Shown here: in pieces, positions 10,352 through 23,988 of the stretch
Layout: every line of letters starts with the position of its first letter
Position numbering within the stretch: position 1 is the first letter of the stretch
NCBI GenBank assembly: GCA_027624955.1
Contig: JAQBTG010000011.1
Coordinates: 1 to 64,000 of the forward strand
DNA: 64,000 bases
DNA from: Pseudomonadota bacterium
Lineage (GTDB): Bacteria; Pseudomonadota; Alphaproteobacteria; UBA828
Reading direction: 5' to 3'
Program-made: the position numbers and the translations under genes
The notes under the pieces: generated by a model
What the model saw: only the letters and a program-made list of their open reading frames with translations
What the model was told of the DNA's origin: nothing
The model's database searches: none

Positions 10352-11500
10352 ATGAGCAGCGAAATCGGCGCGAAAGTCGCGCTAATCGACCACCATTGCC
10401 ACGGCGTCATGCCCCACGACCTCACCCTCGCCCAATTTGAGGATTCACTAAGTGAAGCGTTCGCGCCAGCGCCCGCCGGCACCAGCCATTGGGACAAGCC
10501 GGTCGCGCTCTCGATCCGCCGTTGGTGCGCGCCGCTCCTGGATTTGCCGAAATTCGCGTCGCCCGAGGATTATGCCGCACGTCGCCTGGAGCTGGGCGCG
10601 AGTGAGGTCAACAAACGCTTCATGCGCGCCGCCGGCTTCGAAATGCTGCTGGTCGATTCGGGCAACCGCCCGGAGGAGCTTTGCTCGGTCGAGGAATTGG
10701 GCGTGATCGCCGACGTGCCGGCGCGCGAAGTGGTGCGTATGGAATCTGTGGCCGAACGTGTCGCGTCAGGCGGCGGCATCAGCGCCGCCGGTTACGCCGA
10801 TGCCGTCGAAGCGGCGCTCCGCGCTTCTCTGCATGACAATGTGGTGGGCTTGAAAACGGTCATCGCCTACCGCGCGACGCTGGCCATCGATTACGTGCCG
10901 CCGGGGCCGGGTGAAGTCGCGCGCGCCGCCGGCGCCTGGCTTGCCGAGATCGAAAAAACCGGCCGCGCGCGCATCACCGATCACGTGCTGGAGCGGCATT
11001 TGCTGTGGACTGGCGCCAATATCGCGCGTGAGAAGGGCTTCCCGCTACAATTCCATATCGGCATCGGCGATCCTGATATCGAGCTCAACAAGGTCGATCC
11101 TAGCCGCCTGACGCCGTTCATCCACGAAGCCGAGGCCTGGCAATTCCCCATCACCTTGCTGCATTGCTACCCGTTCCACCGTCAGGCTGGGCTGATGGCC
11201 GAAAATTTCCCATTCGTTTATTTCGATGTCGGCTTTGTGCAAAACTGGGCCGGGCCGAGCTATCAACGCATCATGGATGAGGCGTTGGAGCTGGTGCCGT
11301 TCACCAAGCAGCTTTATTCGTCCGACGGGTTCGGTCTGTCCGAGCTTTATTACCTCGGCGCTTTCCGTTTCCGCACCAGTGTCGCGCGGGCACTGAACCG
11401 CTGGATCGATGAAGACGAATTGGCGGCCGGTGAAGCCGAGCGCATCGTCGATCTGATCGGGCGTGGCAATGCGCGGCGCATCTACCCGCTCGGTGATTGA
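10352..11500 (+). CDS. Amidohydrolase-superfamily protein, FluG N-domain-like
   Basis: 382 residues with a metal-dependent TIM-barrel layout. The first strand carries His-Cys-His (HxH, residues 15 and 17, in LIDHHCHGV). FHIGIGDPDIELNK and LLHCYPFHRQAG hold later metal-binding His residues, and the last strand has LYSSDGFGLSELYY with the conserved Asp. This resembles the amidohydrolase domain found alone or fused to glutamine-synthetase-like domains in FluG-type proteins, rather than urease-type enzymes. Its stop is 3 nt before an N-formylglutamate amidohydrolase-type gene, so the two are almost certainly co-translated. It is divergent from the SDR across a 144-nt gap (10208-10351) in which I see no clear site. 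Hydrolysis of an amide or lactone is inferred; the substrate is unknown. Confidence 0.78.
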   Translation: MSSEIGAKVALIDHHCHGVMPHDLTLAQFEDSLSEAFAPAPAGTSHWDKPVALSIRRWCAPLLDLPKFASPEDYAARRLELGASEVNKRFMRAAGFEMLLVDSGNRPEELCSVEELGVIADVPAREVVRMESVAERVASGGGISAAGYADAVEAALRASLHDNVVGLKTVIAYRATLAIDYVPPGPGEVARAAGAWLAEIEKTGRARITDHVLERHLLWTGANIAREKGFPLQFHIGIGDPDIELNKVDPSRLTPFIHEAEAWQFPITLLHCYPFHRQAGLMAENFPFVYFDVGFVQNWAGPSYQRIMDEALELVPFTKQLYSSDGFGLSELYYLGAFRFRTSVARALNRWIDEDELAAGEAERIVDLIGRGNARRIYPLGD

Positions 11501-11503
11501 TCG

Positions 11504-12295
11504 ATGCCGGCCGGCCTGATTGGCGCCAACGATCCGCTGCCCTTCGAAACCATCAATGAGGACGGTGAGGCGGCGCTGCTGCTGATCTGCGATCATGCCA
11601 GTTGCGCGGTGCCCGAGGCGCTCGACATGCTCGGCCTCGACGCCGCGACCGTCACCGACCATATCGGCTGGGATATCGGCGCCGCCGCGGTGACCCGGCA
11701 ACTCTCAGTGCTGCTCGACGCGCCGGCGGTTCTTGCCGGCTATTCGCGCCTTCTTATCGATTGCAACCGCCCCGCCGCCGCGCCCGATCAGGTGCCGCCA
11801 GTTGCAGACGGCCGGCCCGTTCCTGGCAATCAAAACCTCAGCCCGGCCGATATCGCGGCCCGCCGGGAGGCGTTCTTCGATCCCTATCACGAGGAAATCC
11901 GCTATTTCCTGGATAAGTTCGAGACCGCCGAACGGGTGCCGATACTGGCCGCCATCCACAGCTTTACCCCGTCGATGACGTCGGATAACGAAGCCCGCCC
12001 GTGGCAAATCTCGGTTTGTTGGGACCGCGATGGCCGGGTTGCGTTGCCGATGCTGGCGGCGCTCCGCGAAGAAGGCCTCTCAGTCGGTGAAAACCAGCCT
12101 TACGGCTTTGACGAACTGTCCGATTTCGCCATTCCGGAATACGGCCTGAAGCGCGGCTTGCCGCATATCCTGGTCGAAATTCGCAACGATCAAATTCGCT
12201 CTGACGCCGATGTTGCGACCTGGGCGGCGCGCCTCGCGCTTCATCTCGCGGTGGCGCTTGGCGATCCGGCGGCGCAACGCATCGAGAAGTTCTGA
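11504..12295 (+). CDS. N-formylglutamate amidohydrolase family protein (copy 1)
   Basis: 263 residues of the FGase family (zinc-dependent, HutG/DUF-type). Diagnostic stretches: LLLICDHASCAVPEAL near residue 25, DIGAAAVTRQLSVLLDAP, GYSRLLIDCNRP and AIHSFTPSM, all of which also occur in a second copy at 24384. Family members deformylate N-formyl-L-glutamate, the last step of one histidine degradation route, but no other hut gene is present. Many homologues encoded beside amidohydrolases act on other N-formyl or N-acyl compounds. It follows the FluG-like amidohydrolase by 3 nt. An N-formyl substrate would fit a locus that also encodes a formamide hydrolase, but this is inference. Confidence 0.84.
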   Translation: MPAGLIGANDPLPFETINEDGEAALLLICDHASCAVPEALDMLGLDAATVTDHIGWDIGAAAVTRQLSVLLDAPAVLAGYSRLLIDCNRPAAAPDQVPPVADGRPVPGNQNLSPADIAARREAFFDPYHEEIRYFLDKFETAERVPILAAIHSFTPSMTSDNEARPWQISVCWDRDGRVALPMLAALREEGLSVGENQPYGFDELSDFAIPEYGLKRGLPHILVEIRNDQIRSDADVATWAARLALHLAVALGDPAAQRIEKF

Positions 12296-12485
12296 ACTAA
12301 CCTGGCCATGGCGATTGGTCCTCCGCCGCAAGCAGCGCAGCCTCCAGCCAATGGCTCAGCAGGGCGCGCGTTTCCGCAATATTGTCGTACCGCCGCGCGC
12401 GGGTTAAACATGCTATTGAGCCCTGGATCGGCTGCCAAGGCGAGTTTACCCGGCGAGCCGCACGCCATTAATTCAAGAGGTATAG

Positions 12486-13016
12486 ATGCCGCTGCTGGAG
12501 GATTTCGATTTTCAACCGGGCGACGGGCTTCTCAAGCAAGTCGATGCACAACTGTTTAAAGAAGGCATGCGCCAGCTCACCGCCGGCGTGACCATCGTCA
12601 CCACCGCCATCGGCAGGGAGCGCCGCGGCCTCACCGCCACTGCCGTTTGTTCGCTCTCGGCCGAGCCGCCGACGCTGCTCGCCTGCGTCAACCGCGAGGC
12701 CGGCGCGCATGACCCGACCCTGCAAAGCCGCGTCTTTTGCGTCAATCTTCTGGCCACCCATCACCGCAAACTGGCCGCTCTGTTTGCCGATCCAACGAAA
12801 ACCGCGGAACGTTTCGAGAGTGGCGAATGGGGCACGCTTGCAAGTGGCGCTCCAGTGCTGATGGACAGCCTCGCCAGCTTCGATTGCATCCTTGGCCAGA
12901 CCATGCGCGCCGAAACCCACACCGTGCTGACCGGCCGGGTGCAGGCGGTGCGCCTCAACGATAGCCTGCGACCACTATTATATTCGCGCGGCGAGTTCGG
13001 CTCTTTCGCATCGTAA
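12486..13016 (+). CDS. Flavin reductase family protein (FMN-binding split barrel)
   Basis: 176 residues with the flavin-reductase-like fold. It opens with FKEGMRQLTAGVTIVTT (about residues 23-39), followed by GLTATAVCSLSAEPPTLLACV and FCVNLL, the standard FMN-cradling strands. Such proteins supply reduced FMN to a partner monooxygenase (HpaC/RutF type). A luciferase-like flavin-dependent oxidoreductase lies 4.5 kb away at 17572 and is a possible partner, though not in the same operon. Start ATG 12486 has AAGAGG upstream. The 190-nt gap before it (12296-12485) holds no convincing gene. A stand-alone reductase without a partner is the alternative. Confidence 0.86.
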   Translation: MPLLEDFDFQPGDGLLKQVDAQLFKEGMRQLTAGVTIVTTAIGRERRGLTATAVCSLSAEPPTLLACVNREAGAHDPTLQSRVFCVNLLATHHRKLAALFADPTKTAERFESGEWGTLASGAPVLMDSLASFDCILGQTMRAETHTVLTGRVQAVRLNDSLRPLLYSRGEFGSFAS

Positions 13017-13095
13017 AGGCGATGCCATCCACCGGGATACATGCAGATACGGTGAGGCGTTGCCCACACCGCCGCCACATTTGTAGGAGACAAAA

Positions 13096-13947
13096 ATGAA
13101 TATCGATATTGGCGGCGTAAACCTCTTTTTCGATATCGAAGGCGCGAAGTTCGTCCCTGAGGGCCCCGACATGCGCGAGCGCCCGACGCTTGTATTGCTA
13201 CATGGCGGGCCGGGCTTCGATCATTCCCATTTGATGCCGGCCCATTCTGAGTTGGCGGACGTAGCGCAATGCGTCTTCCTCGACCACCGGGGCAATGGGC
13301 GCAGCGATCGTTGCACGCCCGAGACCTGGAACCTCGCCCAATGGGGCGATGACGTTTATGAGTTTTGCCAGGCGCTCGGCATCGAGAAGCCGATCGTGCT
13401 CGGCCTCTCGTTCGGCGGCTTCGTCGCCCAGTCCTATGCCACCCGCCACCCCGAACACCCGGCCAAGCTCATACTATCGAGCACCGCGGGCACCATGCGG
13501 TGGGATCGTATTCACGACATGTTCGAGCGCCTTGGCGGCGCTGAAGCGCGCCGGCTGGCCGCGGATTTTTGGGCCGATGCCTCTAATGCGGCGGCGCTCG
13601 GGCGGTATCTGGAGACCTGCTTCCCGCTCTATAACCAGACGCCGCAAGGGACCGACATGCTCACCCGCAGCGTCATTAACGCCGATGTGCTTGGAGATTT
13701 CTTCAAGCCCGATGGCGAGGGCCACAGCTTTAATCTGCTGCCCGATCTGGCCAAGATTCAATGCCCGACCCTGGTGATGACCGGCGATATGGACCCGGTG
13801 ACGCCGCCGCCGCAATCGCAAGATATCGTCGCCGCACTGCCCGACGGCCTGGCCGAGCTCCGCATTTTCAAAGGCTGCGGCCACGGCGTCGAGCGCGACG
13901 ACAAAGAGGCCGCACTCAAAACCATCCGCGAATTTATCCTTAGCTAA
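13096..13947 (+). CDS. Alpha/beta hydrolase, proline-iminopeptidase-like
   Basis: 283 residues. The oxyanion-hole motif HGGPG is at 36-40, DHRGNGRSD at 63-71, the nucleophile elbow GLSFGG has Ser105, the acid is probably the Asp in MTGDMDPVTPP, and the base is the His in GCGHGVERDD. HGGPG plus DxRGxGxS is the signature of the S33 proline iminopeptidase branch, which also contains many esterases, lactonases and amide hydrolases. Start ATG 13096 has GTAGGAGA ahead of it. It ends 2 nt from the stop of a convergent small gene. Peptidase versus small-molecule hydrolase cannot be decided by eye. Confidence 0.86.
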   Translation: MNIDIGGVNLFFDIEGAKFVPEGPDMRERPTLVLLHGGPGFDHSHLMPAHSELADVAQCVFLDHRGNGRSDRCTPETWNLAQWGDDVYEFCQALGIEKPIVLGLSFGGFVAQSYATRHPEHPAKLILSSTAGTMRWDRIHDMFERLGGAEARRLAADFWADASNAAALGRYLETCFPLYNQTPQGTDMLTRSVINADVLGDFFKPDGEGHSFNLLPDLAKIQCPTLVMTGDMDPVTPPPQSQDIVAALPDGLAELRIFKGCGHGVERDDKEAALKTIREFILS

Positions 13948-13949
13948 AC

Positions 13950-14243
13950 CTAGGCGTCGGTCTTGTTGAAATAGCGGATGGAGGGCGGGCCTTCGAGGGC
14001 TTCGACGAAAGCGCCAAGCACGCCGGTCTCCTCGCGCCAAGCGATATATTTTTCGAAATGGCCCTGGCTGTCCCAAACGCCCTCGATGATGCAGGCATCC
14101 GGGTCATCCTGCTTTTGATAAACCACGATGCTGTGGTTGCCGTCATAGCTCCTGGTATCGGGCAAAATTTCCTTGAGCTTCTCCACCAGCCCGTTGCCGG
14201 CCCCGGCTTTGGCCTTGAATTCAAGCATAACCGTGGTTGTCAT
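13950..14243 (-). CDS. Antibiotic biosynthesis monooxygenase (ABM) domain protein, putative quinol monooxygenase
   Basis: 97 residues, a single ferredoxin-like ABM/YgiN-type domain: MTTTVMLEFKAKAGAGN at the N-terminus, HSIVVYQKQDDPDACIIEGVWDS in the middle strand, and HFEKYIAWREETGVLGAF before the end. Such dimers oxidise quinols or aromatic compounds without a cofactor, or act as binding proteins. It is transcribed towards the alpha/beta hydrolase, ending 2 nt from it, with its own start beside the GGGAGGC at about 14247. No partner gene is obvious. Function beyond the fold is not supported. Confidence 0.78.
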   Translation of the reverse strand: MTTTVMLEFKAKAGAGNGLVEKLKEILPDTRSYDGNHSIVVYQKQDDPDACIIEGVWDSQGHFEKYIAWREETGVLGAFVEALEGPPSIRYFNKTDA

Positions 14244-14310
14244 GGGAGCCTCCCTGTTTCGTTGTCATCTATTCCTATTGAACCTCAGCCAAGGTCGTCA
14301 AGCAGCGTTT

Positions 14311-15849
14311 TTATTCTGACCGCACGAACAGAATATCCGCGACCGCACGCTCGAACGGGATGGTGAGGCCGGCGATGGCGCCGTCGCCGTCGTTGAGGAA
14401 CGAAACTTCGAGATGGCTGCGCGACGTCACTGGGATTTTGACAATCTCGAAGATGTCGCCGCGGTAGGGGCGGAGCGGCAGTGTGAACTGGCCATAGCCG
14501 AGCGTCAGCGCCTGATCCTTCAGCATGATCCGCACCTCCCCATAAGCGGGATGATGGTAGGTGCCGACAAACTCCGTGAGCGCGTGTGTGGGGCCGACAG
14601 TGAGGTCACGCGACCGCGCGTGGCGGGCGGCTTTTTGCCGCTGTTGCAAATCCCATTCAAGATAATCCGACGCCACCCAATCGTTCCACGGCAGCGGCGC
14701 CAATCCGAGCAGGCGGTCGAATAGATTGCGCGTCAGGATGGTCGGCGCCGGATTGCGGTCGAGATTACTCAGCGCAACGACACCGATACCGGCATCAGGC
14801 AAAAAGGCGAGGAGGGCGACAAAGCCATCTACACCGCCGGCATGCCAGACGATACGCTGACCGCGATAGGTCGATATAAGGAACCCCATGCCATAGGCGG
14901 CAGGGCCGAGCGCCGCATGTGTCGGCGCATCGTCGAGCACGACGCGCGGCGTCTGCATAGCTTTCGCCTGGCCTTCGGATAGCAACGGCACGCCGTTATG
15001 GCGTCCCTGGTTCATGTGAAAGGCGAGATAGCGCAGCATATCATCGGCGCTGGAGTTGATCGCGCCGGCCGGCGCGATAGCGCGCATGTCGTAAAACGCC
15101 AGCCGGTGGATTTGGCCATCGCCTAATTCGTAAGGCTTGGCGTGCCCCGGGTTGTTTTCGTTCGGCGAAAAATCCGTGTGAGTCATGCCGAGCGCGGCGA
15201 GCAGGCGGCGGCGGGTAAATTTCTGCCAGCTTTCGCCGCTCAGGGCTTCGGCAATGCGCCCGGCGGCGGCAACCATCAGATTGTTATATTGCCAGGTGCT
15301 GCGGAACAGCGCGCCGGGTGCGAGGTGGCGCATGGCGTTGAACAGCTGGTCGGCGCTGAGGCCGCTGCCGTACCACAGCATATCGTGGCGTGCCAAACCG
15401 CTGCGGTGGGTGACCATGTCGCGCGGCGTGGTTTCCGCCGCGGCGAGCGCATCGGCGAGGGCGAATTCGGGCAATATGCCGCGCACCGGACTGTCCCAGT
15501 CCAGGCGGCCCTCGTCCGCCAGCAGGCCTAGGCCGGCGATGGTGAAAGATTTGGTGATCGAGCCGATGGCGAAAACCGTCTGCGGCGTCACCGCCACCCG
15601 GTCTTCCACATCGGCGAAGCCGTAACCGGCGCAATAGAGCGTTTCGCCGTCCTGGATGATCCCAAGCGCGAGGCCCGGCACCTGCCACTCGGCCATCACG
15701 CTACGGGCGAATTCATCGAACCCCGCCAGCGCTTCAGGCGCGCGTTCTCCGCCGCAAGAAGCCTGCGCCACGCCGGGCAAAATGCCGGCCAGCAGCACGC
15801 CCGAGAGGACGGCAAACAGCAAAAAGAGAACGCCGATAAAGTGGCGCAT
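14311..15849 (-). CDS. Serine hydrolase of the beta-lactamase/class C (S12) family, exported
   Basis: 512 residues. Residues 1-30 form a signal peptide ending GVAQA. The class C tetrad is visible: SxxK as Ser97-Ile-Thr-Lys100 in AIGSITKSF, a YxN equivalent in WQYNNLMVAAAG, and HAGG in IVWHAGGVDGF. About 120 residues beyond the penicillin-binding fold form a C-terminal beta domain of the DUF3471 kind (VGTYHHPAYGEVRIML). Family members are esterases, D-amino-acid peptidases or beta-lactamase-like enzymes of the periplasm; a true beta-lactamase role is not implied. Last gene of the run headed by the GntR-type regulator; its start is 10 nt from the SDR stop. Confidence 0.88.
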   Translation of the reverse strand: MRHFIGVLFLLFAVLSGVLLAGILPGVAQASCGGERAPEALAGFDEFARSVMAEWQVPGLALGIIQDGETLYCAGYGFADVEDRVAVTPQTVFAIGSITKSFTIAGLGLLADEGRLDWDSPVRGILPEFALADALAAAETTPRDMVTHRSGLARHDMLWYGSGLSADQLFNAMRHLAPGALFRSTWQYNNLMVAAAGRIAEALSGESWQKFTRRRLLAALGMTHTDFSPNENNPGHAKPYELGDGQIHRLAFYDMRAIAPAGAINSSADDMLRYLAFHMNQGRHNGVPLLSEGQAKAMQTPRVVLDDAPTHAALGPAAYGMGFLISTYRGQRIVWHAGGVDGFVALLAFLPDAGIGVVALSNLDRNPAPTILTRNLFDRLLGLAPLPWNDWVASDYLEWDLQQRQKAARHARSRDLTVGPTHALTEFVGTYHHPAYGEVRIMLKDQALTLGYGQFTLPLRPYRGDIFEIVKIPVTSRSHLEVSFLNDGDGAIAGLTIPFERAVADILFVRSE

Positions 15850-15859
15850 ATCGCTCAGA

Positions 15860-16630
15860 TTACAGTTGCGCCATCAAGCCGCCATCGACAACCAGATCGA
15901 TGCCGGTGATGAACGACGCACGATCGGAAAGCAGGAATAGGCAGGCAAAGGCGATGTCTTCCGGCAGACCGAGGCGCCTGAGCGGTGTGCGCGCCGCCAT
16001 AGCCTCGGCGCGCTCAGGATAGACATCGTAAATCGGGCTGGTCATTGGCGAGAGAATTGCGCCGGGGCAGATGGTGTTGGAGCGGATATTATCGAGCGCA
16101 AATTGCAAGGTGAGCGAGCGCGACAGCCCAACAAGCGCAAACTTTGACGCCTGATAAGCCTCCATCGGGCCGCCTTCGATGATGTTTTCCATGTTGCGCA
16201 ACCCGGCGACGCTGGCGATATGCACCAGCACGCCGCCGCGCCCGCCCTGTTTGATCAGTGGCACGGCATAGCGCGCCATCAGGCCGGCGCCGGTAAGGTT
16301 GATCTCGATCACCTGACGCCACACCGCCATATCCATCTCGACAATCGAGGTATCGGTGTCGAACCAACCCACGCCGGCGGCGTTGACCAGATAATCGAGC
16401 CGCCCGGCGCGCGCATGGGCGGCGGCGATGGTGGCTTTGACGAAAGCCTCGTCAGTGATGTCGCCTTCGACATAATGGCCGCTGCCGAGGTTGAAATCGT
16501 CAGGCTCGGGCTTGAGGTCGATCGCCGTCACCTCAGCGCCTTCTTCTTGTAGGGCGCGCGCGATGGCCAGGCCTTGGCCGCCACCGGCGCCCGTAAGAAT
16601 AACGTTCCTGCCGCTGAATTCCTTGGTCAT
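15860..16630 (-). CDS. SDR family oxidoreductase
   Basis: 256 residues. Cofactor motif TGAGGGQG at 13-20, Asp38 after strand 2 (AIDLKPEPD, implying NAD preference), NAAG at 83-86, Ser140, Tyr159 and Lys163 in AYQASKFA. It resembles the SDR at 20641 over the whole length, with the shared GAGGG(Q/M)GLAIA, D(L/I)KPEP and ASFITG motifs, so the two are paralogues on opposite sides of one regulator. Its start overlaps the preceding esterase stop by 4 nt, indicating translational coupling. Likely oxidises an alcohol released by the esterase or the oxygenase; the substrate is unknown. Confidence 0.88.
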   Translation of the reverse strand: MTKEFSGRNVILTGAGGGQGLAIARALQEEGAEVTAIDLKPEPDDFNLGSGHYVEGDITDEAFVKATIAAAHARAGRLDYLVNAAGVGWFDTDTSIVEMDMAVWRQVIEINLTGAGLMARYAVPLIKQGGRGGVLVHIASVAGLRNMENIIEGGPMEAYQASKFALVGLSRSLTLQFALDNIRSNTICPGAILSPMTSPIYDVYPERAEAMAARTPLRRLGLPEDIAFACLFLLSDRASFITGIDLVVDGGLMAQL

Positions 16631-17559
16631 GTGTTGAATACCTCGCGCAAAGCTGCGGCGGAATCGTAAAGACCCGCCTCGGCGCTCTCGATCAAACCGG
16701 TGATCGAGGCAAATCCGTGAATCATGTTCTCATAGCATTTATGTTGCACCGCCACGCCGGCTTCGGCGAGGCGCTTGGCATAGGCATCGCCCTCGTCGCG
16801 CAACGGATCGAAGCCGGCCGTCAGCACAAAGGCCGGCGGCAGGCGCGTGAGATCGGTGGCGCGGAGCGGCGAGGCCAGGGGGTCCAGCGCGTCGCCCTTC
16901 GGGCCGAGATAACTGGCGATATAGAACGGCATGGAATCGAGCAGATAGCCGCTCGAATAGAGGCGTTTCGATTTCGTCTCGCTGGCGAGGTCGGTGACCG
17001 GATAAATCAGCAATTGGAACATCAGAGTCGGCCCGCCGCCGTCGCGCGCCAAATGCGTCACGGCGCAGGCAAGATTGCCGCCGGCGCTGTCGCCGCCGAT
17101 GGCAAGGCGCGCCGGATCGCCGCCCCACGCCGCGGCGTTTTCAGCCACCCAGCGCACCCCCGCCAGCGCGTCATGCACGGGCCCAGGAAAGTGACATTCG
17201 GGCGCCGGGCGATAGTCGATCGCCGCCACGATGCAGCCCGCGTGATGGCACAGGAAGCGGCAGATATCGTCATGCGTATCGAGATCGCCGCGGATCCAGC
17301 CGCCGCCATGGATATAACTGAGCACGGGCAGGGCGGATGCGCCCACTTCCGGATGGTAGATGCGTGCCGCAAGCGGCCCGCCGGGGCCCTCGAATTCGCG
17401 CGCTTCGATCCGCGCGACCGCGAGCGGCTTGCCAGCCACTGCCGCCATTTCCGCCTTCCAGATTTCGCGTGCGCGTACGGGCGTCATTTCCTCGACCGGC
17501 TCTTCCCCGCTAGGATCAAGGGAATCGAGGATTTCCTTCAGCTTGGGGTCGAGTTCCAT
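16627..17559 (-). CDS. Alpha/beta hydrolase fold-3 (HSL/lipase-esterase family)
   Basis: 310 residues of the hormone-sensitive-lipase family. Oxyanion motif HGGGW at 84-88, nucleophile elbow GDSAG at 156-160 with Ser158, acid probably the Asp in GFDPLRDEGDAY and base the His in MIHGF. The N-terminal cap (1-60) is typical of bacterial HSL esterases acting on short-chain esters. ATG 17559 lies 12 nt after the LLM oxidoreductase stop, and the stop overlaps the SDR start by 4 nt, so it is part of the regulator-led run. An ester produced by a Baeyer-Villiger-like flavin oxidation would be an attractive substrate, but that is inference. Confidence 0.9.
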   Translation of the reverse strand: MELDPKLKEILDSLDPSGEEPVEEMTPVRAREIWKAEMAAVAGKPLAVARIEAREFEGPGGPLAARIYHPEVGASALPVLSYIHGGGWIRGDLDTHDDICRFLCHHAGCIVAAIDYRPAPECHFPGPVHDALAGVRWVAENAAAWGGDPARLAIGGDSAGGNLACAVTHLARDGGGPTLMFQLLIYPVTDLASETKSKRLYSSGYLLDSMPFYIASYLGPKGDALDPLASPLRATDLTRLPPAFVLTAGFDPLRDEGDAYAKRLAEAGVAVQHKCYENMIHGFASITGLIESAEAGLYDSAAALREVFNT

Positions 17560-17571
17560 GCCCGCTGCGGC

Positions 17572-18663
17572 TCAGCCCTTGAATTTTGACGAATAGCGCG
17601 GCGCCACTTCTTTGGCGAAGCGCCGCATCCAGTCATGGCGCTTGGCGCGCGGCACGCCGGTGGTGGCGATATGCAGCAGGAAACTGCCGAACCCCGCCGC
17701 CCTATAGCGCTCCAACTGGCGGCACACGGTTTCCGGCGAGCCGACGAACTGAAATTGCGACCAGCGCGGCATGGATTCGGGGTTGCACTTGTCCACCATG
17801 CTGTTGAACACATGGCTCCAGGATTTGTACGAGCCCAAATTTTTAAAATGGTCCTTGTCGCCTTCATAATGATCGACCTGCTGCTGCATGAAGGGCGGAA
17901 TGAAGGTCTTGGCGTCCTCCACCGCTTCTTCGTCGGTGTCGGCAATGATGCAATTGACCATCAGCGGGATCGGCTTTGAGGTGTTGAGGCCGTGCGCCGC
18001 CGCCCGTTCATGCCAGCGCGCGATGACCTCATGCTGCTTCTCAAAATTGGCGATGGTGGTGCACATTGGGGTGAGCCCGAGATCGGCCATGATCTCGGCA
18101 CTCTCTGGGCTGGCTCCGAGGGCGCCGTAAAAGTTTATTTTTGCCGTATCGCCGCGCGGGCGGATTTCGATTTCCTTCGGCACGTTCAAATGTTCGCCCT
18201 GATAAGTGAAGCGCCCTCCCTTGAGCGCCGTGGAGATGATCTCATAGCACTCACGGAATCGCGCCCGGCCCAATTCCATGTCGATGCCGAAGGCGTCATA
18301 TTCCATTTTTGCGGTGCCGCGCCCGATGCCGAGATGAAGCGGCTGCTTGGTGAGCGCGTTGAGCTGGGCGATCTCTTCGGCCAGGCGCAGTGGCTCATAC
18401 CAGGGCGTCACCAATACGCAGGTGCCGAGCCCAAGGTCGGGAAAGCGCGCGGCGATAAAATGCAAAAACGCCAGCGGGTTGGGTGTCGGGTAGTAGTCCG
18501 AGAAATGATGCTCGATCATATACGCGGTGGCGTAGCCCAACTCCTGGCCAAGCTCGCAATCGGCGAGGATTTCGTCGTAGCTTTCGCCGTCCGTCAGGCT
18601 CCTTTCACCTGACGGCGCGGCGACGAAGCCGAACTCAATATCCCGTTGGGCGCTGATGGTCAT
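17572..18663 (-). CDS. LLM class flavin-dependent oxidoreductase (luciferase-like)
   Basis: 363 residues with the bacterial-luciferase TIM-barrel pattern: EFGFVAAPSGE at the N-terminus, AYMIEHHFSDYYPTPNPLAFL, VLVTPWYEPLRLAEEIAQL, and LGIGRGTAKMEYDAFGID as the flavin phosphate loop. Such enzymes use reduced FMN from a separate reductase (a candidate is encoded at 12486) or F420 to oxygenate organic substrates. It is the first gene after the GntR-type regulator, 19 nt downstream, and is followed by an esterase, an SDR and a serine hydrolase. Reaction and substrate cannot be named. FMN dependence is favoured because no F420 genes are seen. Confidence 0.88.
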   Translation of the reverse strand: MTISAQRDIEFGFVAAPSGERSLTDGESYDEILADCELGQELGYATAYMIEHHFSDYYPTPNPLAFLHFIAARFPDLGLGTCVLVTPWYEPLRLAEEIAQLNALTKQPLHLGIGRGTAKMEYDAFGIDMELGRARFRECYEIISTALKGGRFTYQGEHLNVPKEIEIRPRGDTAKINFYGALGASPESAEIMADLGLTPMCTTIANFEKQHEVIARWHERAAAHGLNTSKPIPLMVNCIIADTDEEAVEDAKTFIPPFMQQQVDHYEGDKDHFKNLGSYKSWSHVFNSMVDKCNPESMPRWSQFQFVGSPETVCRQLERYRAAGFGSFLLHIATTGVPRAKRHDWMRRFAKEVAPRYSSKFKG

Positions 18664-18682: not shown

Positions 18683-19450
18683 TTATTGCTTGGCCGGAAC
18701 GGCACGTTGCACCAGGCCCTCGACGCCACCCTGGCTGGCGCGCAAATGCGCCGCCATGGCGGCTTCCGCCGCGTCGGCATCGCCGGCCTCTAGGGCGGCA
18801 AAGATCGCTTCGTGATAGGCGTTGGCATTGTCTTCGAGTCTGCGGAACACCGCACCAATCGGAAGAAACATCGCGGCGCGAGCCTCTTCGATGGCGGCCA
18901 GCAGATAGTCGTTGCGCGCCGCCCGAGCGATGCCCAGATGAAATTCGGAATCAACCGCCATGAACTGGCTCACCGTGGCCATCGCCTGGGCTTCGTCGGC
19001 CTCTGGACGCGGCGTGGCGAGCTCGCCCATACGCTTCACATGGCGCGCCAGCGCCACCAAATCGCTCTTGCTGCGGCGTGCCGAGGCAAGCCCCGCGGCG
19101 CTGCATTCGATCGCCATGCGGTAATCGTAAATCGCCTCAATCGCCTTCAATCTGCCGGCGAGTGATTTCTCCAAAACATCGGCGTTCTGTTCCAATATCG
19201 TGAGGCCGCCCGCCGCACCGCGTTTGCTTTGCACCAAGCCATAGCCTTCCAATATCTTGACCGCGTCGCGCACGGTGGTGCGTGAAACGCCAAGCTGCTT
19301 GGCCAGTTCGCGCTCCGGCGGCAATTTGTCGCCAGCCAAAAAGCGCCCCAAATGGATCGCCCGGCGCAACTGCTCGACCACCAGCTCGCAGGCCGAGGTC
19401 GGGCGCACCGGATCGATAACGGCATGGGCTTGGCCTATGGGATGGCCCAT
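18683..19450 (-). CDS. GntR/FadR-type transcriptional regulator (FCD domain)
   Basis: 255 residues. N-terminal winged helix-turn-helix at about 20-90 (LPPERELAKQLGVSRTTVRDA is the recognition region, then GYGLVQSKRGAAGG as the wing) and a C-terminal all-helical FCD effector domain at about 110-235 with SEFHLGIARAARN and the NANAYHEAIFAALEAGD end. FCD regulators sense organic acids, often with a metal ion, and usually repress catabolic operons. I start at ATG 19450 because an AAAGGA lies about 7 nt upstream; an in-frame start 15 nt earlier lacks one. A GGTCTAA/TTAGACC inverted repeat at 19476-19499 in its own promoter suggests autoregulation and control of the genes on both sides. Confidence 0.88.
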   Translation of the reverse strand: MGHPIGQAHAVIDPVRPTSACELVVEQLRRAIHLGRFLAGDKLPPERELAKQLGVSRTTVRDAVKILEGYGLVQSKRGAAGGLTILEQNADVLEKSLAGRLKAIEAIYDYRMAIECSAAGLASARRSKSDLVALARHVKRMGELATPRPEADEAQAMATVSQFMAVDSEFHLGIARAARNDYLLAAIEEARAAMFLPIGAVFRRLEDNANAYHEAIFAALEAGDADAAEAAMAAHLRASQGGVEGLVQRAVPAKQ

Positions 19451-19475
19451 GTAAATTCCTTTCAAATTTTAGAAT

Positions 19476-19499
19476 GGTCTAAATATCATACCTTAGACC
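19476..19499. promoter_or_regulatory. Inverted-repeat operator candidate in the divergent regulator promoter
   Basis: GGTCTAA (19476-19482) and TTAGACC (19493-19499) form a perfect 7-bp inverted repeat with a 10-nt spacer. It lies 26 nt before the start of the GntR-type gene and 70 nt before the divergent plus-strand gene. The same core GGTCTA/TAGACC occurs at 9395-9419, but there the cores are 5 nt apart instead of 12. Candidate autoregulatory operator; the difference in spacing weakens the claim that one protein binds both. Confidence 0.5.
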
Positions 19500-19568: not shown

Positions 19569-20636
19569 ATGGCGCAGGAAGTAACAGGCGGCGCGGTAGC
19601 GTTCGATGCCGATCTCGGCCATGCGGCGCCGAGGGGCCCGATCGCCGCACAAGGCGAATCGAGCTATCGCCGGGCGGCGCAAGCACTCGCTGCGGGGCGC
19701 TTCCAAGACGCCGCCGATTTCGCGCGGTACACAATCGAAGAAGCGCGCGAAGGGCATGAGGTGTATGCCGCCTGGGCCGATCAAACCCGGCGTTACCTGC
19801 TGCGCGAGGGCGTCAGTGCAGACACCCTCGCGGCGGAGGATGCGCGTCTCGCCGGTCTGTTGCGCCTCGACGACGGCACAGCGTTCGACGCTGCCGAGCG
19901 CTGGGCTGAATATAACCGCCTGATCGATAATTTCATATTCGCCTGCGGGGCCGGCGACAGCGCGGCGGCCGCTACCAATTTGGAAGCGGCACGGCTTTCC
20001 TGGCGCGCTACCCATGACCGCGCTTGCGATTGGTTGTACGGCCTGTTGGATGCCGTGGTGCGCCATTTTGGCGAAGCACGCATCGGCCCGCTCTGGGACG
20101 AATTGTTGGCGCCGATGTATGCGACCTATGACCGCTACGATCCCGCGGTCACGCCGTGGCCGGAGTCAATCCGCCGCTTGGTGTTGGTGGCCGCAGAATC
20201 TTTACGCGGCCATCTCAGCGGCCCCGGGCGCATGGGCGATATCGAAATAGTCGAAGAGGCGGATCGCTGGGTGCTGAGCTTTGATCCGTGCGGCACGGGC
20301 GGGCGCACGTACCGCGATGATGCAGCCGAAGGCTATACGCCGCGTATGGTGCCGCCCTATGATTTCGCCGTCACGCAAGAGGAACATGATTGGGCGTGGA
20401 ACAAGAAGGGCGTCTGCGTGTACTGCGTGCATTGCTGCCAGCTCAACCAGCGCATGCCCATCGCCCGCTTCGGCTTTCCCACCCGCGTGGTGACACCGCC
20501 GACCTGGCCAGAAGCACGAACCGGTGGAAAATGCGTCTGGAGCATTTACAAAGACCCTTCAGCGGTGCCGGAGGAAGCCTACCGGGAGGTTGGCCTCGAA
20601 AAGCCGGTGCGCTTCGGCGGTACCGGAGAGGGATGA
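19569..20636 (+). CDS. Uncharacterised cysteine-rich protein, predicted metal site
   Basis: 355 residues, family not recognised. The N-terminal 200 residues look all-alpha (SSYRRAAQALAAGRFQDAADFARYTI; a helical, perhaps TPR-like or ligand-sensing part). The C-terminal 120 residues hold Cys241 in FDPCGTGGR, then Cys283, Cys286, His288, Cys289 and Cys290 in KGVCVYCVHCCQLN, and Cys322, followed by YKDPSAVPEEAYREVG. Clustered Cys/His with well-ordered flanks suggests a metal or iron-sulfur site, or a redox-active thiol. No signal peptide or membrane segment. GAAGGAG stands 7 nt before ATG 19569. It is divergent from the GntR-type regulator and 4 nt ahead of an SDR, so it is probably a catabolic enzyme of the same regulon. 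I do not assign a function. Confidence 0.72.
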   Translation: MAQEVTGGAVAFDADLGHAAPRGPIAAQGESSYRRAAQALAAGRFQDAADFARYTIEEAREGHEVYAAWADQTRRYLLREGVSADTLAAEDARLAGLLRLDDGTAFDAAERWAEYNRLIDNFIFACGAGDSAAAATNLEAARLSWRATHDRACDWLYGLLDAVVRHFGEARIGPLWDELLAPMYATYDRYDPAVTPWPESIRRLVLVAAESLRGHLSGPGRMGDIEIVEEADRWVLSFDPCGTGGRTYRDDAAEGYTPRMVPPYDFAVTQEEHDWAWNKKGVCVYCVHCCQLNQRMPIARFGFPTRVVTPPTWPEARTGGKCVWSIYKDPSAVPEEAYREVGLEKPVRFGGTGEG

Positions 20637-20640
20637 GCAC

Positions 20641-21399
20641 ATGGCGCAAATAAATTTCCAAAATCGCGGCGGTTTGGTCGCTGGCGCCGGCGGCGGCATG
20701 GGCCTCGCCATCGCCAACGGCCTAATTGAGGGCGGCGCCGATATTGTCCTGGCCGATATCAAGCCCGAGCCCCAAGGCATTGCCGCCGGTCCGGGCCGCG
20801 CGCTTTATCTACAGGGCGATTTGAGCGATGAGGATTTCGTCCGCGATGTCGTCGCCCAAACCCAAGCCCATGCCAGGCGCTTCGATTATCTCGTCAATAC
20901 AGTCGGCGTGTGGTGGGGCGAAACGGATCTGTCCGTTGTCGATATCGAGCGCTCGGTGTGGGATCGGGTGTTCGACATCAATCTCGGCTCTATGATGTTG
21001 ACGGCGCGCCATGCGGTGCCGCTGATGCAAGCCAATGGCGGCGGCGCCATCCTATTGATTTCTTCGATCCAGGCGCTGCGCGGTGATCCTCGCGCGCAGG
21101 ACGCCTACGGAATTTCAAAGGGTGCCATCCGTACGCTGTCCAAATCCCTCGCCATCCAGTTTGCCGGCGATAACATCCGCTGCAACGCTATCTTGCCGGG
21201 CTATGTCCGGAGCGAAATGACGCGCCGCTTCGATGACAATTCAGCGCGCAGCGAGGCGGTACGCAAACGCATCCCGCTCGCCCGTTTCGGCGAGGTTGCG
21301 GATATCGCCGGGCCAAGCTTGTTCTTGCTGTCCGACGCCGCCTCGTTCATTACCGGCACGGAGTTGATCGTCGACGGCGGTACGACCGCCCTACCGTAA
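20641..21399 (+). CDS. SDR family oxidoreductase (paralogue of the 15860 gene)
   Basis: 252 residues. Glycine motif AGAGGGMG at 14-21 (the usual Thr is replaced by Ala), Asp39 in ADIKPEPQ, Ser141/142, Tyr156 and Lys160 in AYGISKGA. Start ATG 20641 sits 4 nt after the stop of the cysteine-rich gene with GGAGAGGG upstream; the frame is open further upstream but overlaps that gene. Its last 9 nt overlap the 3' end of the convergent radical SAM gene. The similarity to the SDR on the other side of the regulator suggests two related dehydrogenation steps. NAD preference is inferred from the acidic residue after strand 2. Confidence 0.87.
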   Translation: MAQINFQNRGGLVAGAGGGMGLAIANGLIEGGADIVLADIKPEPQGIAAGPGRALYLQGDLSDEDFVRDVVAQTQAHARRFDYLVNTVGVWWGETDLSVVDIERSVWDRVFDINLGSMMLTARHAVPLMQANGGGAILLISSIQALRGDPRAQDAYGISKGAIRTLSKSLAIQFAGDNIRCNAILPGYVRSEMTRRFDDNSARSEAVRKRIPLARFGEVADIAGPSLFLLSDAASFITGTELIVDGGTTALP

Positions 21400-22545
21400 A
21401 GTCGGCACGACCGTCTTACCTAAAATTTCTGTCGCCTCAGCGGTGAAATCGCGCATCCGTACCGGCAGGCGTTTGGCACCCCAGGCGCCCGGCGCGCCCT
21501 CGAACACCCCGGCGCAGGGCGTGCCGCATTGGCGGCAGGCGCCGGCATCGTTCAACCCCCAGAATGAGAGCGTATAGCGGTCGCGCCCGATCAGCAGCGC
21601 CGAGCAATTATGGCAATAGGTGCTGCCGCGCCCGCGGTCGCTGACATTGCCGACATAGGCATGGCGCACGCCGTTTTTGAGTGCCGTGCGGCGCGCCAGA
21701 TTGAGGGTTTGGTGCGGCGTATTGGGCTTGTCCATCATGCGGTAATCGGGATGGAAAGCGGAAAAATGCAGCGGCACATCGGGTCCGAGATGTTCGACCA
21801 CCCAGGCGCTCATTTCATCGAATTCACCCTCTGAATCATTCTCGCCGGGGATCACCAGATTGGTGAGCTCGAACCAGGTGTCGGTTTCCTCTTTGAGAAA
21901 TATCAGCGTCTCCAGCACATCCTTCAAGTGGCTGTTGGTGATGTTCCAGTAGAAATCCTCGGTGAACGCCTTTAAATCGACATTGGTCGCGTCCATATGG
22001 CGGAAGAATTCGGCGCGCGGCTTGGGCGAAATATAGCCAGCCGTCACCGCCACCGTAGCGATGCCGATCTCCTTACAGGCCTGGGCGATATCGATGGCAT
22101 ATTCCATGAATATCACGGGGTCGTTATAGGTAAAGGCGACGCTTCGGCAGCCGAGCTTCTGCGCCACTGCCGCGACTTGCTCCGGCTTGGCGCCGTCGGC
22201 CAAGGTGTCGATCTCGCGCGATTTGCTGATGTCCCAATTCTGGCAAAACTTGCAGGCAAGATTGCAGCCCGCCGTGCCGAACGACAGCGTCGGCGTGCCG
22301 GGCAGGAAATGATTGAGTGGCTTTTTCTCGATCGGATCGACGCAAAAGCCGCTCGAACGCCCATAGGTGGTGAGCACCACTTGATCACCCAGCCGCCCGC
22401 GCACAAAACACAGGCCGCGCTGGCCTTCGTTCATTTTGCATGCGCGCGGGCACACATCGCATTGAATGCGGCCATCGTCGAGCGCATGCCAATATTGCGT
22501 CGGCCAGCTTTCAGTATTTTCGTCGATGCGCTCGTCGCCGCTCAT
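21391..22545 (-). CDS. amrS: AmmeMemoRadiSam system radical SAM enzyme
   Basis: 384 residues. The radical SAM cluster motif CNLACKFC is at Cys94, Cys98 and Cys101. An N-terminal Cys cluster (CDVCPRACKMNEGQRGLC, residues 29-46) and a C-terminal zinc-ribbon-like set (YCHNC, CRQCGTPC) complete the usual AmrS layout. The AmrS family is tightly linked to Memo and AMMECR1 proteins, and a fusion of those two is encoded divergently 60 nt away. The biochemical product of the system is not established as far as I know. I prefer ATG 22545 (MSGDERIDEN); an in-frame TTG at 22587 would add 14 residues. The 3' end overlaps the convergent SDR by 9 nt. Confidence 0.93.
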   Translation of the reverse strand: MSGDERIDENTESWPTQYWHALDDGRIQCDVCPRACKMNEGQRGLCFVRGRLGDQVVLTTYGRSSGFCVDPIEKKPLNHFLPGTPTLSFGTAGCNLACKFCQNWDISKSREIDTLADGAKPEQVAAVAQKLGCRSVAFTYNDPVIFMEYAIDIAQACKEIGIATVAVTAGYISPKPRAEFFRHMDATNVDLKAFTEDFYWNITNSHLKDVLETLIFLKEETDTWFELTNLVIPGENDSEGEFDEMSAWVVEHLGPDVPLHFSAFHPDYRMMDKPNTPHQTLNLARRTALKNGVRHAYVGNVSDRGRGSTYCHNCSALLIGRDRYTLSFWGLNDAGACRQCGTPCAGVFEGAPGAWGAKRLPVRMRDFTAEATEILGKTVVPTLR

Positions 22546-22605
22546 GAGGAATTTTCCGTGTGTTGTGCTAGAATGCGAGCGTAGCAAACCTATGAGAGCC
22601 TAGCC

Positions 22606-23988
22606 ATGGCAAGCGTGCGCCAACCGGCCGTCGCCGGCACATTTTATTCGGCCGAGGCATCGGAGTTAGAAAATTCCGCAGCCGCTCATCTTAATTCGCC
22701 CTTGGCCTGGGATATTGCCGCCAAGGCGCTGGTGGTGCCGCATGCGGGTCACGTCTATTCCGGCGCCATCGCCGGCACGGCCTATGCCTCGGTGCGACAC
22801 CTGGCCGCGCAAATTGAGCGCGTGGTTCTGCTCGGCCCGGCCCACCGTGTGGCGTTTAAGGGCGTCGCTGTGCCGAGCGCCGATGCCCATGCCACGCCGC
22901 TTGGCAATGTACCGGTCGATTGGCCGGGCGTCGCGACTGCGCTGGCGCTGCCGCAAGTGCATATCAACGATGCCGCGTTCGAAAATGAGCATTCGCTGGA
23001 AGTGCATCTGCCGTTCCTGCAACGCGCTCTCGGCGATTTCGCCCTGGTGCCGCTGCTGGTCGGTGATACCAAGCCCGAAGGGGTGGAGCAGGTGCTGCAA
23101 AAATTATGGGGCGGGCCGGAAACCCTGATCGTCATCAGCACCGATCTCAGCCACTTTCATGATTATGCCGAGGCACAAAAGCTCGACGCGAGCGCCACCC
23201 GCGCAATCGAGACCTTCAATGTCGAAGGCTTGAGCGGCGAGCTTGCCTGCGGCTTCCGCCCGCTTTCCGGCCTGTTGCGCGCCGCGCAGCGGCTTGACCT
23301 CCGTCCGACGACGCTCGATGTGCGCAATTCCGGCGATACGGCGGGCGATAAAATGCGGGTCGTCGGTTACGGCTCTTATGCGTTCGAATATTCCGGCGCC
23401 GCGCGCACGCCCGACAAATACCGCACGCCGTTCCTTGATATCGCCCAACAATCGATCCGCCACGGCATCAAGACCGGTGCCTGCCCGAATGTTGACCTAT
23501 CGGGCTTTCCGTATCCGATGCGCACCCACCGGCGCACATTTGTCAGCGTCCACACCGGCGGCAAGCTGCGCGGTTGTGTCGGCTCGCTGGTTGCCAACAA
23601 TCCGCTGATTGCCGATGTCGTGCAAAACGCCTACCGCGCCGCCTTCGAGGACAAGCGCTTCAAGCCGCTTACCGAAGAGGACCTGGTCGAGACCGATATT
23701 TCAATCTCCATTCTCAGCACGCCGCGGCCCATGGTTTTTCGCAATGAGGCCGATCTTGTGGCACAGATCCAGCCCGATACCGATGGCCTGATCCTGCAAG
23801 ACGGTAACAAGCGCGGCATCTTTCTGCCCGTCGTGTGGGAGCAGATTTCTGAGCCGCGCGAATTCCTGCGCCACCTCAAAAACAAGGCCGGCTTGCCGCT
23901 TGACCATTGGTCAGACGGCATCAAGCTGTGGCGCTACACCACCGAATCCTTCGCCACCAAATTCGCGCCAGCGCCGGCCGACGCTTAA
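22606..23988 (+). CDS. Memo-AMMECR1 fusion protein (AmmeMemoRadiSam B and A components)
   Basis: 460 residues in two parts. Residues 1-265 are the Memo domain: PHAGHVYSG (45-53), NEHSLEVHLPF (127-137), ISTDLSHFHD (177-186) and ACGFRPLSG with Cys215 line a metal site resembling non-haem iron dioxygenases. Residues 275-455 are the AMMECR1 domain with the hallmark KLRGCVGSL at 320-328. In many genomes these are separate genes; a single chain argues that the two work together. The start ATG 22606 is 60 nt from the divergent radical SAM partner, implying joint regulation. The cellular reaction is unknown; a role in modifying a nucleotide or small molecule with the radical SAM enzyme is only a guess. 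Confidence 0.92.
   Translation: MASVRQPAVAGTFYSAEASELENSAAAHLNSPLAWDIAAKALVVPHAGHVYSGAIAGTAYASVRHLAAQIERVVLLGPAHRVAFKGVAVPSADAHATPLGNVPVDWPGVATALALPQVHINDAAFENEHSLEVHLPFLQRALGDFALVPLLVGDTKPEGVEQVLQKLWGGPETLIVISTDLSHFHDYAEAQKLDASATRAIETFNVEGLSGELACGFRPLSGLLRAAQRLDLRPTTLDVRNSGDTAGDKMRVVGYGSYAFEYSGAARTPDKYRTPFLDIAQQSIRHGIKTGACPNVDLSGFPYPMRTHRRTFVSVHTGGKLRGCVGSLVANNPLIADVVQNAYRAAFEDKRFKPLTEEDLVETDISISILSTPRPMVFRNEADLVAQIQPDTDGLILQDGNKRGIFLPVVWEQISEPREFLRHLKNKAGLPLDHWSDGIKLWRYTTESFATKFAPAPADA

What the first reader, a model, noticed from the sequence alone, without database searches (positions are those of the whole stretch)
19569..20636. Unrecognised protein with a CxxCxHCC cluster in a GntR regulon
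A 355-residue protein with an alpha-helical N-terminal region and a C-terminal C-x2-C-x-HCC plus two more Cys does not match any family I can name. It is the first gene of a divergent pair controlled with an LLM oxidoreductase, esterase, serine hydrolase and two related SDRs. It could be a new redox or metal enzyme of a catabolic route.
Basis: partly seen in the sequence, partly recalled or inferred. Interest (0 to 1): 0.65.

Follow-up and report, generated by a model that had tools for sequence, protein, structure and literature searches.

The report
Unnamed three-cysteine catabolic protein family
The gene encodes a member of a real but unnamed bacterial protein family, marked by three invariant cysteines, that is inherited together with enzymes for breaking down an unidentified compound; its role is unknown, and it is only faintly related to zinc-binding ligand-binding domains and ring-opening hydrolases.

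Summary
Window 19569-20636 (+) encodes a 355-aa protein with C-x2-C-x-H-C-C (C283, C286, H288, C289, C290) plus C241 and C322. It matches no Pfam, NCBIfam or PDB sequence. It belongs to an uncharacterised, rare family. A long form (~350 aa) occurs across the window's order and on three Rhodococcus plasmids. A short form (~245 aa) occurs as a paralog in the same order, in a few other alphaproteobacteria and on Rhodococcus pRHL3. One genome carries two tandem copies. All six cysteines are invariant in 17/17 long forms. Across the whole family C241, C286 and C322 are invariant, with the motif PCG[ST]G[GQ]R and K328. Context is conserved: a GntR/FCD regulator, a luciferase-like monooxygenase (LLM), an HSL-type hydrolase and two SDRs, and in other lineages a directly adjacent glutamine-synthetase-like ligase. 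A 21-bp conserved intergenic motif supports the regulon. Profile comparison gives a weak but above-control similarity to ATC_hydrolase (PF14196), a relative of the V4R domain; both carry a three-Cys cluster. My best guess is a Cys-site V4R/ATC-like enzyme or ligand-binding protein serving this catabolic pathway. Structure prediction was poor, so fold and chemistry remain unproven.

The parts
19569..20636 (+). the family protein, long form, 355 aa (P0001)
   Evidence: homologs
19662..19793 (+). residues ~32-75: extra N-terminal helical module, resembling the module that begins the short form
   Evidence: hhalign of the long-form N-terminus with the short-form profile: prob 92, E 6e-7, 43 columns; direct N-terminus vs middle comparison within the long form gave nothing
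19881..20618 (+). residues ~105-350: core domain shared with all short forms
20286..20306 (+). PCGTGGR motif with C241 and R246
   Evidence: invariant C/R in 38 homologs and in both copies of the tandem protein
20415..20438 (+). CxxCxHCC (C283-C290); C286 invariant in the family, H288 in all but one copy
20532..20552 (+). C-x-W-x2-Y-K motif, C322 and K328 invariant
20641..21399 (+). SDR, same operon, 4 nt downstream
   Evidence: conserved partner
19475..19495 (+). conserved 21-bp motif TGGTCTAAATATCATACCTTA in the divergent intergenic region (candidate GntR operator)
   Evidence: identical in three species of the genus, about 15 of 21 bases kept in G299; once in the window, 0 expected
18683..19465 (-). 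GntR/FCD regulator
   Evidence: Pfam GntR and FCD
17572..18663 (-). luciferase-like (LLM) monooxygenase
   Evidence: Pfam PF00296 E 5e-50
16627..17559 (-). HSL-type alpha/beta hydrolase
   Evidence: NCBIfam NF058653 at its cut-off
15860..16630 (-). second SDR
   Evidence: 47% identical to the first
14311..15849 (-). class-C beta-lactamase-like serine hydrolase; seen only in the window's genus among the loci compared

Best explanation
The gene encodes a cytosolic pathway protein of an unnamed family: four helices, then beta-beta-helix-beta-beta, with three invariant Cys placed at the end of strand 2 (C241), the start of the following helix (C286) and the last strand (C322). SHOWN: the family, its invariant residues, its two architectures (the long form has an extra helical module) and its gene linkage. 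INFERRED, weakly: the core is a remote V4R / ATC-hydrolase-like domain in which C241, C286, C322 (with H288 or C289) form one site, probably zinc, that ties the sheet to the helix and frames a small-molecule pocket. INFERRED, more weakly: as in ATC hydrolase it acts on a pathway intermediate, opening a C-N or C-S/C-O bond, between the GntR-controlled oxidation steps (SDRs, LLM monooxygenase, HSL esterase) and, in other lineages, the glutamine-synthetase-like ligases encoded directly next to it. The GntR repressor would sit on the 21-bp motif at 19475-19495 and control both directions.
For: Invariant residues across 38 homologs, most of the core ones still invariant in a very distant tandem copy. 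Profile match to ATC_hydrolase: score 33.3, prob 38, E 3e-4, against a maximum of 20.9 for 36 unrelated families, 22.8 for reversed profiles and (smaller ATC set) 15.7 for column-shuffled profiles; as strong as V4R against ATC in the same test (32.5); the aligned part ends with C241 on the ATC Cys. V4R and ATC domains share a cluster of three conserved Cys (PMC5847659), and V4R-type PoxR and TRAPPC3 bind Zn through Cys that tether the sheet to helix D (PMC10933270). Both weak models give helices-beta-beta-helix-beta-beta. Context; operator motif; Rid (imine/enamine deaminase type) next to the long form in one genus.
Against: Models have mean pLDDT 57 and 54 and Foldseek found nothing. Without the tandem-copy protein the ATC score drops to 25.5, about the level of a reversed-profile control (25.0). 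The C-terminal part with C286 and C322 gives no profile signal of its own. No scanned member hits PF14196 or PF02830 in hmmscan. H288 and C289 are each replaced in some members. Short forms sit in acyl-CoA gene sets without obvious nitrogen chemistry.
Confidence: 0.35

Rival explanations
1. Non-catalytic V4R-like ligand-binding protein: Zn is structural, the pocket binds the pathway's substrate or an acyl-CoA intermediate, and the protein acts as carrier or allosteric partner.
For: [quoted passage not shown] the family occurs with many different enzyme sets, which suits a binding module.
Against: No fused effector domain in any member seen; invariant R246, K328 and (in all 38 aligned homologs) H149-D150 and H215 outside the Cys look enzyme-like.
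Confidence: 0.25
2. Accessory subunit or maturation partner of the adjacent enzyme (GS-like ligase or SDR for the long form, B12 acyl-CoA mutase for the short form).
For: Long form abuts the GS-like gene in 12 loci of three lineages; short form lies directly before the mutase large subunit in three genomes.
Against: Partners are unrelated to each other; the window's own long form has no GS next to it and its genome has no close GS ortholog (best 33%).
Confidence: 0.2
3. Redox or Fe-S protein feeding electrons to the monooxygenase.
For: Six Cys in the long form's C-terminal part, four of them within eight residues, linked to an LLM monooxygenase.
Against: Only three Cys are family-wide; C283 and C290 are Pro and Ala/Thr in all short forms; long forms of genus g227 have no LLM nearby.
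Confidence: 0.12
4. The helical part is a B12-binding_2 (cobalamin cap) domain and the protein serves corrinoid chemistry.
For: Weak Pfam hits of two short forms (E 0.045 and 0.14); three short forms lie beside a B12 mutase.
Against: Profile comparison 23.0 against 21.4 for the best control, so hardly above background; no corrinoid-binding Rossmann domain.
Confidence: 0.04

Closest known systems
[quoted passage not shown]
   Same: Weak profile match over helix plus two strands ending on a conserved Cys; three conserved Cys in the same order; similar size
   Different: No Pfam hit; different surrounding motifs (PCG[ST]GGR, C-x-W-x2-Y-K); C-terminal part not alignable with confidence; activity unknown
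V4R domain, PF02830 (PoxR/MopR sensor, TRAPPC3 relatives)
   Same: Helices then beta-beta-helix-beta-beta in the weak models; Cys cluster; last strand begins with a Cys followed by an aromatic residue in most members
   Different: No Pfam hit and no direct profile signal (score 17.7, within controls); no fused regulator domain
WP_226949923.1 / WP_065493512.1 / WP_011600302.1 of Rhodococcus plasmids
   Same: True homologs (two long forms at 40 and 39%, one short form at 31% to the window protein), in SDR-containing catabolic clusters
   Different: Annotated only as hypothetical proteins; the long-form clusters carry two GS-like ligases, an AllG-like protein and an FMO-like enzyme instead of the LLM

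Membership tests
ATC_hydrolase (PF14196) | Pfam gathering-score match | tested here: not met
   No hit to E 10 for P0001, none to E 1 for the further family sequences scanned
ATC_hydrolase (PF14196) | Three conserved Cys in order after strand 2, in the next helix, before the last strand | tested here: inconclusive
   Three invariant Cys in matching order; only the first is aligned with any confidence
ATC_hydrolase (PF14196) | Profile homology | tested here: inconclusive
   Score 33.3, prob 38, above all controls, but dependent on one divergent protein
ATC_hydrolase (PF14196) | Thiazoline ring opening activity | not testable with these tools
   needs enzyme assay
V4R (PF02830) | Pfam or profile match | tested here: not met
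   hmmscan none; hhalign at most 18.7, within controls
V4R (PF02830) | Helices plus four-stranded sheet with Zn tether between sheet and helix D | tested here: inconclusive
   Order of elements fits, but pLDDT 54-57 and no Foldseek match
B12-binding_2 (PF02607) | Profile match of the helical module | tested here: not met
   23.0 versus 21.4 for the best control
GntR/FCD regulon with LLM, HSL and SDRs | Gene linkage kept in other lineages and a shared operator-like motif | tested here: met
   Linkage in the genus, G299, G289 and, with FMO for LLM, three Rhodococcus plasmids; motif

The most novel reading that the evidence does not exclude
A new enzyme family, outside every curated library searched, whose three-Cys (probably zinc) active site catalyses an unknown step in breakdown of an amine- or amide-containing compound, shared by horizontal transfer between marine alphaproteobacteria and rhodococci.
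Probability: 0.25. Interest if true: 0.65.

Novelty: new variant of a known kind. Interest (0 to 1): 0.42.

Why it matters
A catabolic gene set shared by marine alphaproteobacteria and Rhodococcus plasmids contains one protein no library searched here names. Cultured hosts (R. opacus 1CP, R. jostii RHA1) make both the substrate and the protein's role directly testable, and the family would add a member to the poorly understood V4R/ATC group that spans sensors, hydrolases and a eukaryotic trafficking component.

Tried and rejected
DUF5078 (E 0.048, 42 residues, far below cut-off): chance. TPR_4 and MRPL52: chance. L012 (threonyl-tRNA synthetase by its sequence, E 6e-4): false hit, dropped. B12 cap domain: tested, hardly above control. 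Direct V4R profile match: none. Relatives in viral contigs: none. Self-comparison of the long form's N-terminus with its own middle: no signal, though the same N-terminus matches the short forms. AlphaFold with four close sequences: poor twice; I did not feed loci from the genome search into the predictor because its stated rule does not list them. Foldseek on these models: nothing usable. Methyl-ethyl-ketone breakdown as the role of the SB3094 plasmid cluster: rejected, since that paper assigns it to mekA/mekB genes with other locus tags (Y013_12760/12765; PMC4038895). The R. opacus 1CP transcriptome paper does not mention these genes in its main text by tag or as glutamine synthetase. No Rfam element nearby.

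Full report
What is there. The ORF is as reported: ATG 19569, stop 20634-20636, 355 aa, with CVYCVHCC at residues 283-290 and two further Cys at 241 and 322. There are eight Cys in all; C126 and C153 lie in the helical part. Downstream, 4 nt after the stop, an SDR starts at 20641. Upstream and divergent lie GntR/FCD, LLM monooxygenase, HSL-type hydrolase, a second SDR (47% identical to the first) and a class-C beta-lactamase-like hydrolase.

Not in the libraries. No Pfam match (best DUF5078, E 0.048), no NCBIfam match, no PDB sequence match even with a profile.

Relatives. In the window's order 20 of 22 genomes carry the family. There are two paralogs: a long form like the window protein, and a short form of about 245 aa that aligns to residues ~107-350 and also exists in the window's own genome (G000:C32). 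Elsewhere it is rare: 8 of 289 alphaproteobacterial genomes with the single sequence (one of these a false hit, L012), 10 of 385 with a profile, and 2 of 299 Pseudomonadota. Three Rhodococcus plasmids carry the long form at 39-40% identity and R. jostii RHA1 pRHL3 carries the short one. These are annotated 'hypothetical protein' where the record is annotated. Genome G478 has a 459-aa protein with two tandem copies. In a tree the 17 long forms fall on one side of a fully supported branch (100/99), with the Rhodococcus plasmid proteins inside that group, though their exact place is not well supported.

Conservation. In 17/17 long forms all six C-terminal Cys are kept. In 21 short forms C283 is Pro and C290 is Ala or Thr, while C241, C286, H288 and C322 are invariant and C289 is Cys or, in three, Glu. 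Adding both halves of the tandem protein leaves G168, P240, C241, G242, G244, R246, C286, C322 and K328 invariant. So the core signature is PCG[ST]G[GQ]R, then a Cys usually followed by x-H-C, then a Cys six residues before an invariant Lys; CxxCxHCC is a long-form elaboration. The long form's extra N-terminus (residues 32-75) matches the helical module of the short form (hhalign prob 92, E 6e-7), so it looks like a duplicated module; a direct comparison with the long form's own second module gave no signal, so this rests on the short forms.

Gene context. Window genus: long form then SDR, divergent GntR-LLM-HSL, with the second SDR and the beta-lactamase-like gene where seen. G299: long form, two GS-like ligases, SDR, with divergent GntR-LLM-HSL-SDR. 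G289: long form, two SDRs, LLM, HSL, GntR; the contig ends just past the long form, so a GS there cannot be excluded. Rhodococcus plasmids: FCD regulator, SDR, AllG-like protein, SDR, long form, two GS-like ligases, HSL, SDR, FMO-like enzyme, acetate-CoA ligase; nearby also a PuuD-type gamma-glutamyl hydrolase and glutaminase. Genus g227 (8 genomes): Rid, quinone-oxidoreductase-like, long form, GS-like. The GS-like gene thus abuts the long form in 12 loci of three lineages; the window genome has no close ortholog of it (best 33%). Short forms sit with an AMP-ligase and thiolase, with a B12 acyl-CoA mutase set (three genomes), or with an SDR and CoA-transferase or acyl-CoA dehydrogenase genes. 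The GS-like, Rid and PuuD-like neighbours suggest nitrogen chemistry for the long form; this is inference.

Regulation. The divergent intergenic region carries TGGTCTAAATATCATACCTTA (19475-19495), identical in three species of the genus and kept at about 15 of 21 positions in G299; it occurs once in the window with 0 expected. It overlaps a promoter-like match. It is a candidate GntR/FCD operator, untested.

Fold. Two AlphaFold runs with only four close sequences gave pLDDT 57 and 54; Foldseek found nothing. Both models still give helices, beta-beta, helix, beta-beta. Because that order and the Cys placement recalled V4R and ATC hydrolase, I fetched members of PF14196 and PF02830 and compared profiles. 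Against ATC_hydrolase: score 31.3 then 33.3 with more sequences, prob 38, E 3e-4; 36 unrelated families reach 20.9 at most, reversed profiles 22.8 (25.0 with the smaller ATC set), column-shuffled profiles 15.7. V4R against ATC, a published similarity (PMC5847659), scores 32.5 here. Caveats: the score falls to 25.5 without the G478 tandem protein, and the C-terminal part alone has no signal. I regard remote kinship to the V4R/ATC group as somewhat more likely than not, but unproven. Literature for that group: a three-Cys cluster shared by V4R and ATC domains (PMC5847659), a Zn site of Cys residues tethering sheet to helix D in PoxR and TRAPPC3 (PMC10933270), ligand binding by V4R (PMC2253512).

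Verdict. The interpretation as a new catabolic protein with a conserved Cys site stands; 'redox enzyme' is not supported over 'zinc-type site in a V4R/ATC-like domain'. Function is not established. It is filed under no family: the Pfam criterion for PF14196 and PF02830 was tested and not met.

Noticed in passing
21391-22587 (-) and 22606-23988 (+): Divergent AmmeMemoRadiSam-type pair: a radical SAM protein and a fused Memo-AMMECR1 protein; separate from the finding.
   Followed up: partly
L065 / L112 (G478): A 459-aa protein with two full tandem copies of the core domain; copy 1 has lost H288 and carries FCQICKAC. SDR genes and an acyl-CoA dehydrogenase lie nearby.
   Followed up: partly
L056, L057, L058: Short form directly upstream of a B12 acyl-CoA mutase large subunit, with B12 subunit, ALDH and (found in two of three) a MeaB-type GTPase; possibly a 2-hydroxyisobutyryl-CoA mutase-like route.
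   Followed up: partly
L054 (G027) 11388-17430: Tandemly repeated DUF6285 - phosphotransferase - acyl-CoA dehydrogenase unit beside the short form.
   Followed up: no
L014, L015, L017: Solitary AllG-like (DUF1116) protein between two SDRs on Rhodococcus catabolic plasmids; no other oxamate carbamoyltransferase subunit annotated nearby in the two annotated records.
   Followed up: no
L094, L097 (G000): The window's genome encodes two small stand-alone V4R proteins.
   Followed up: no
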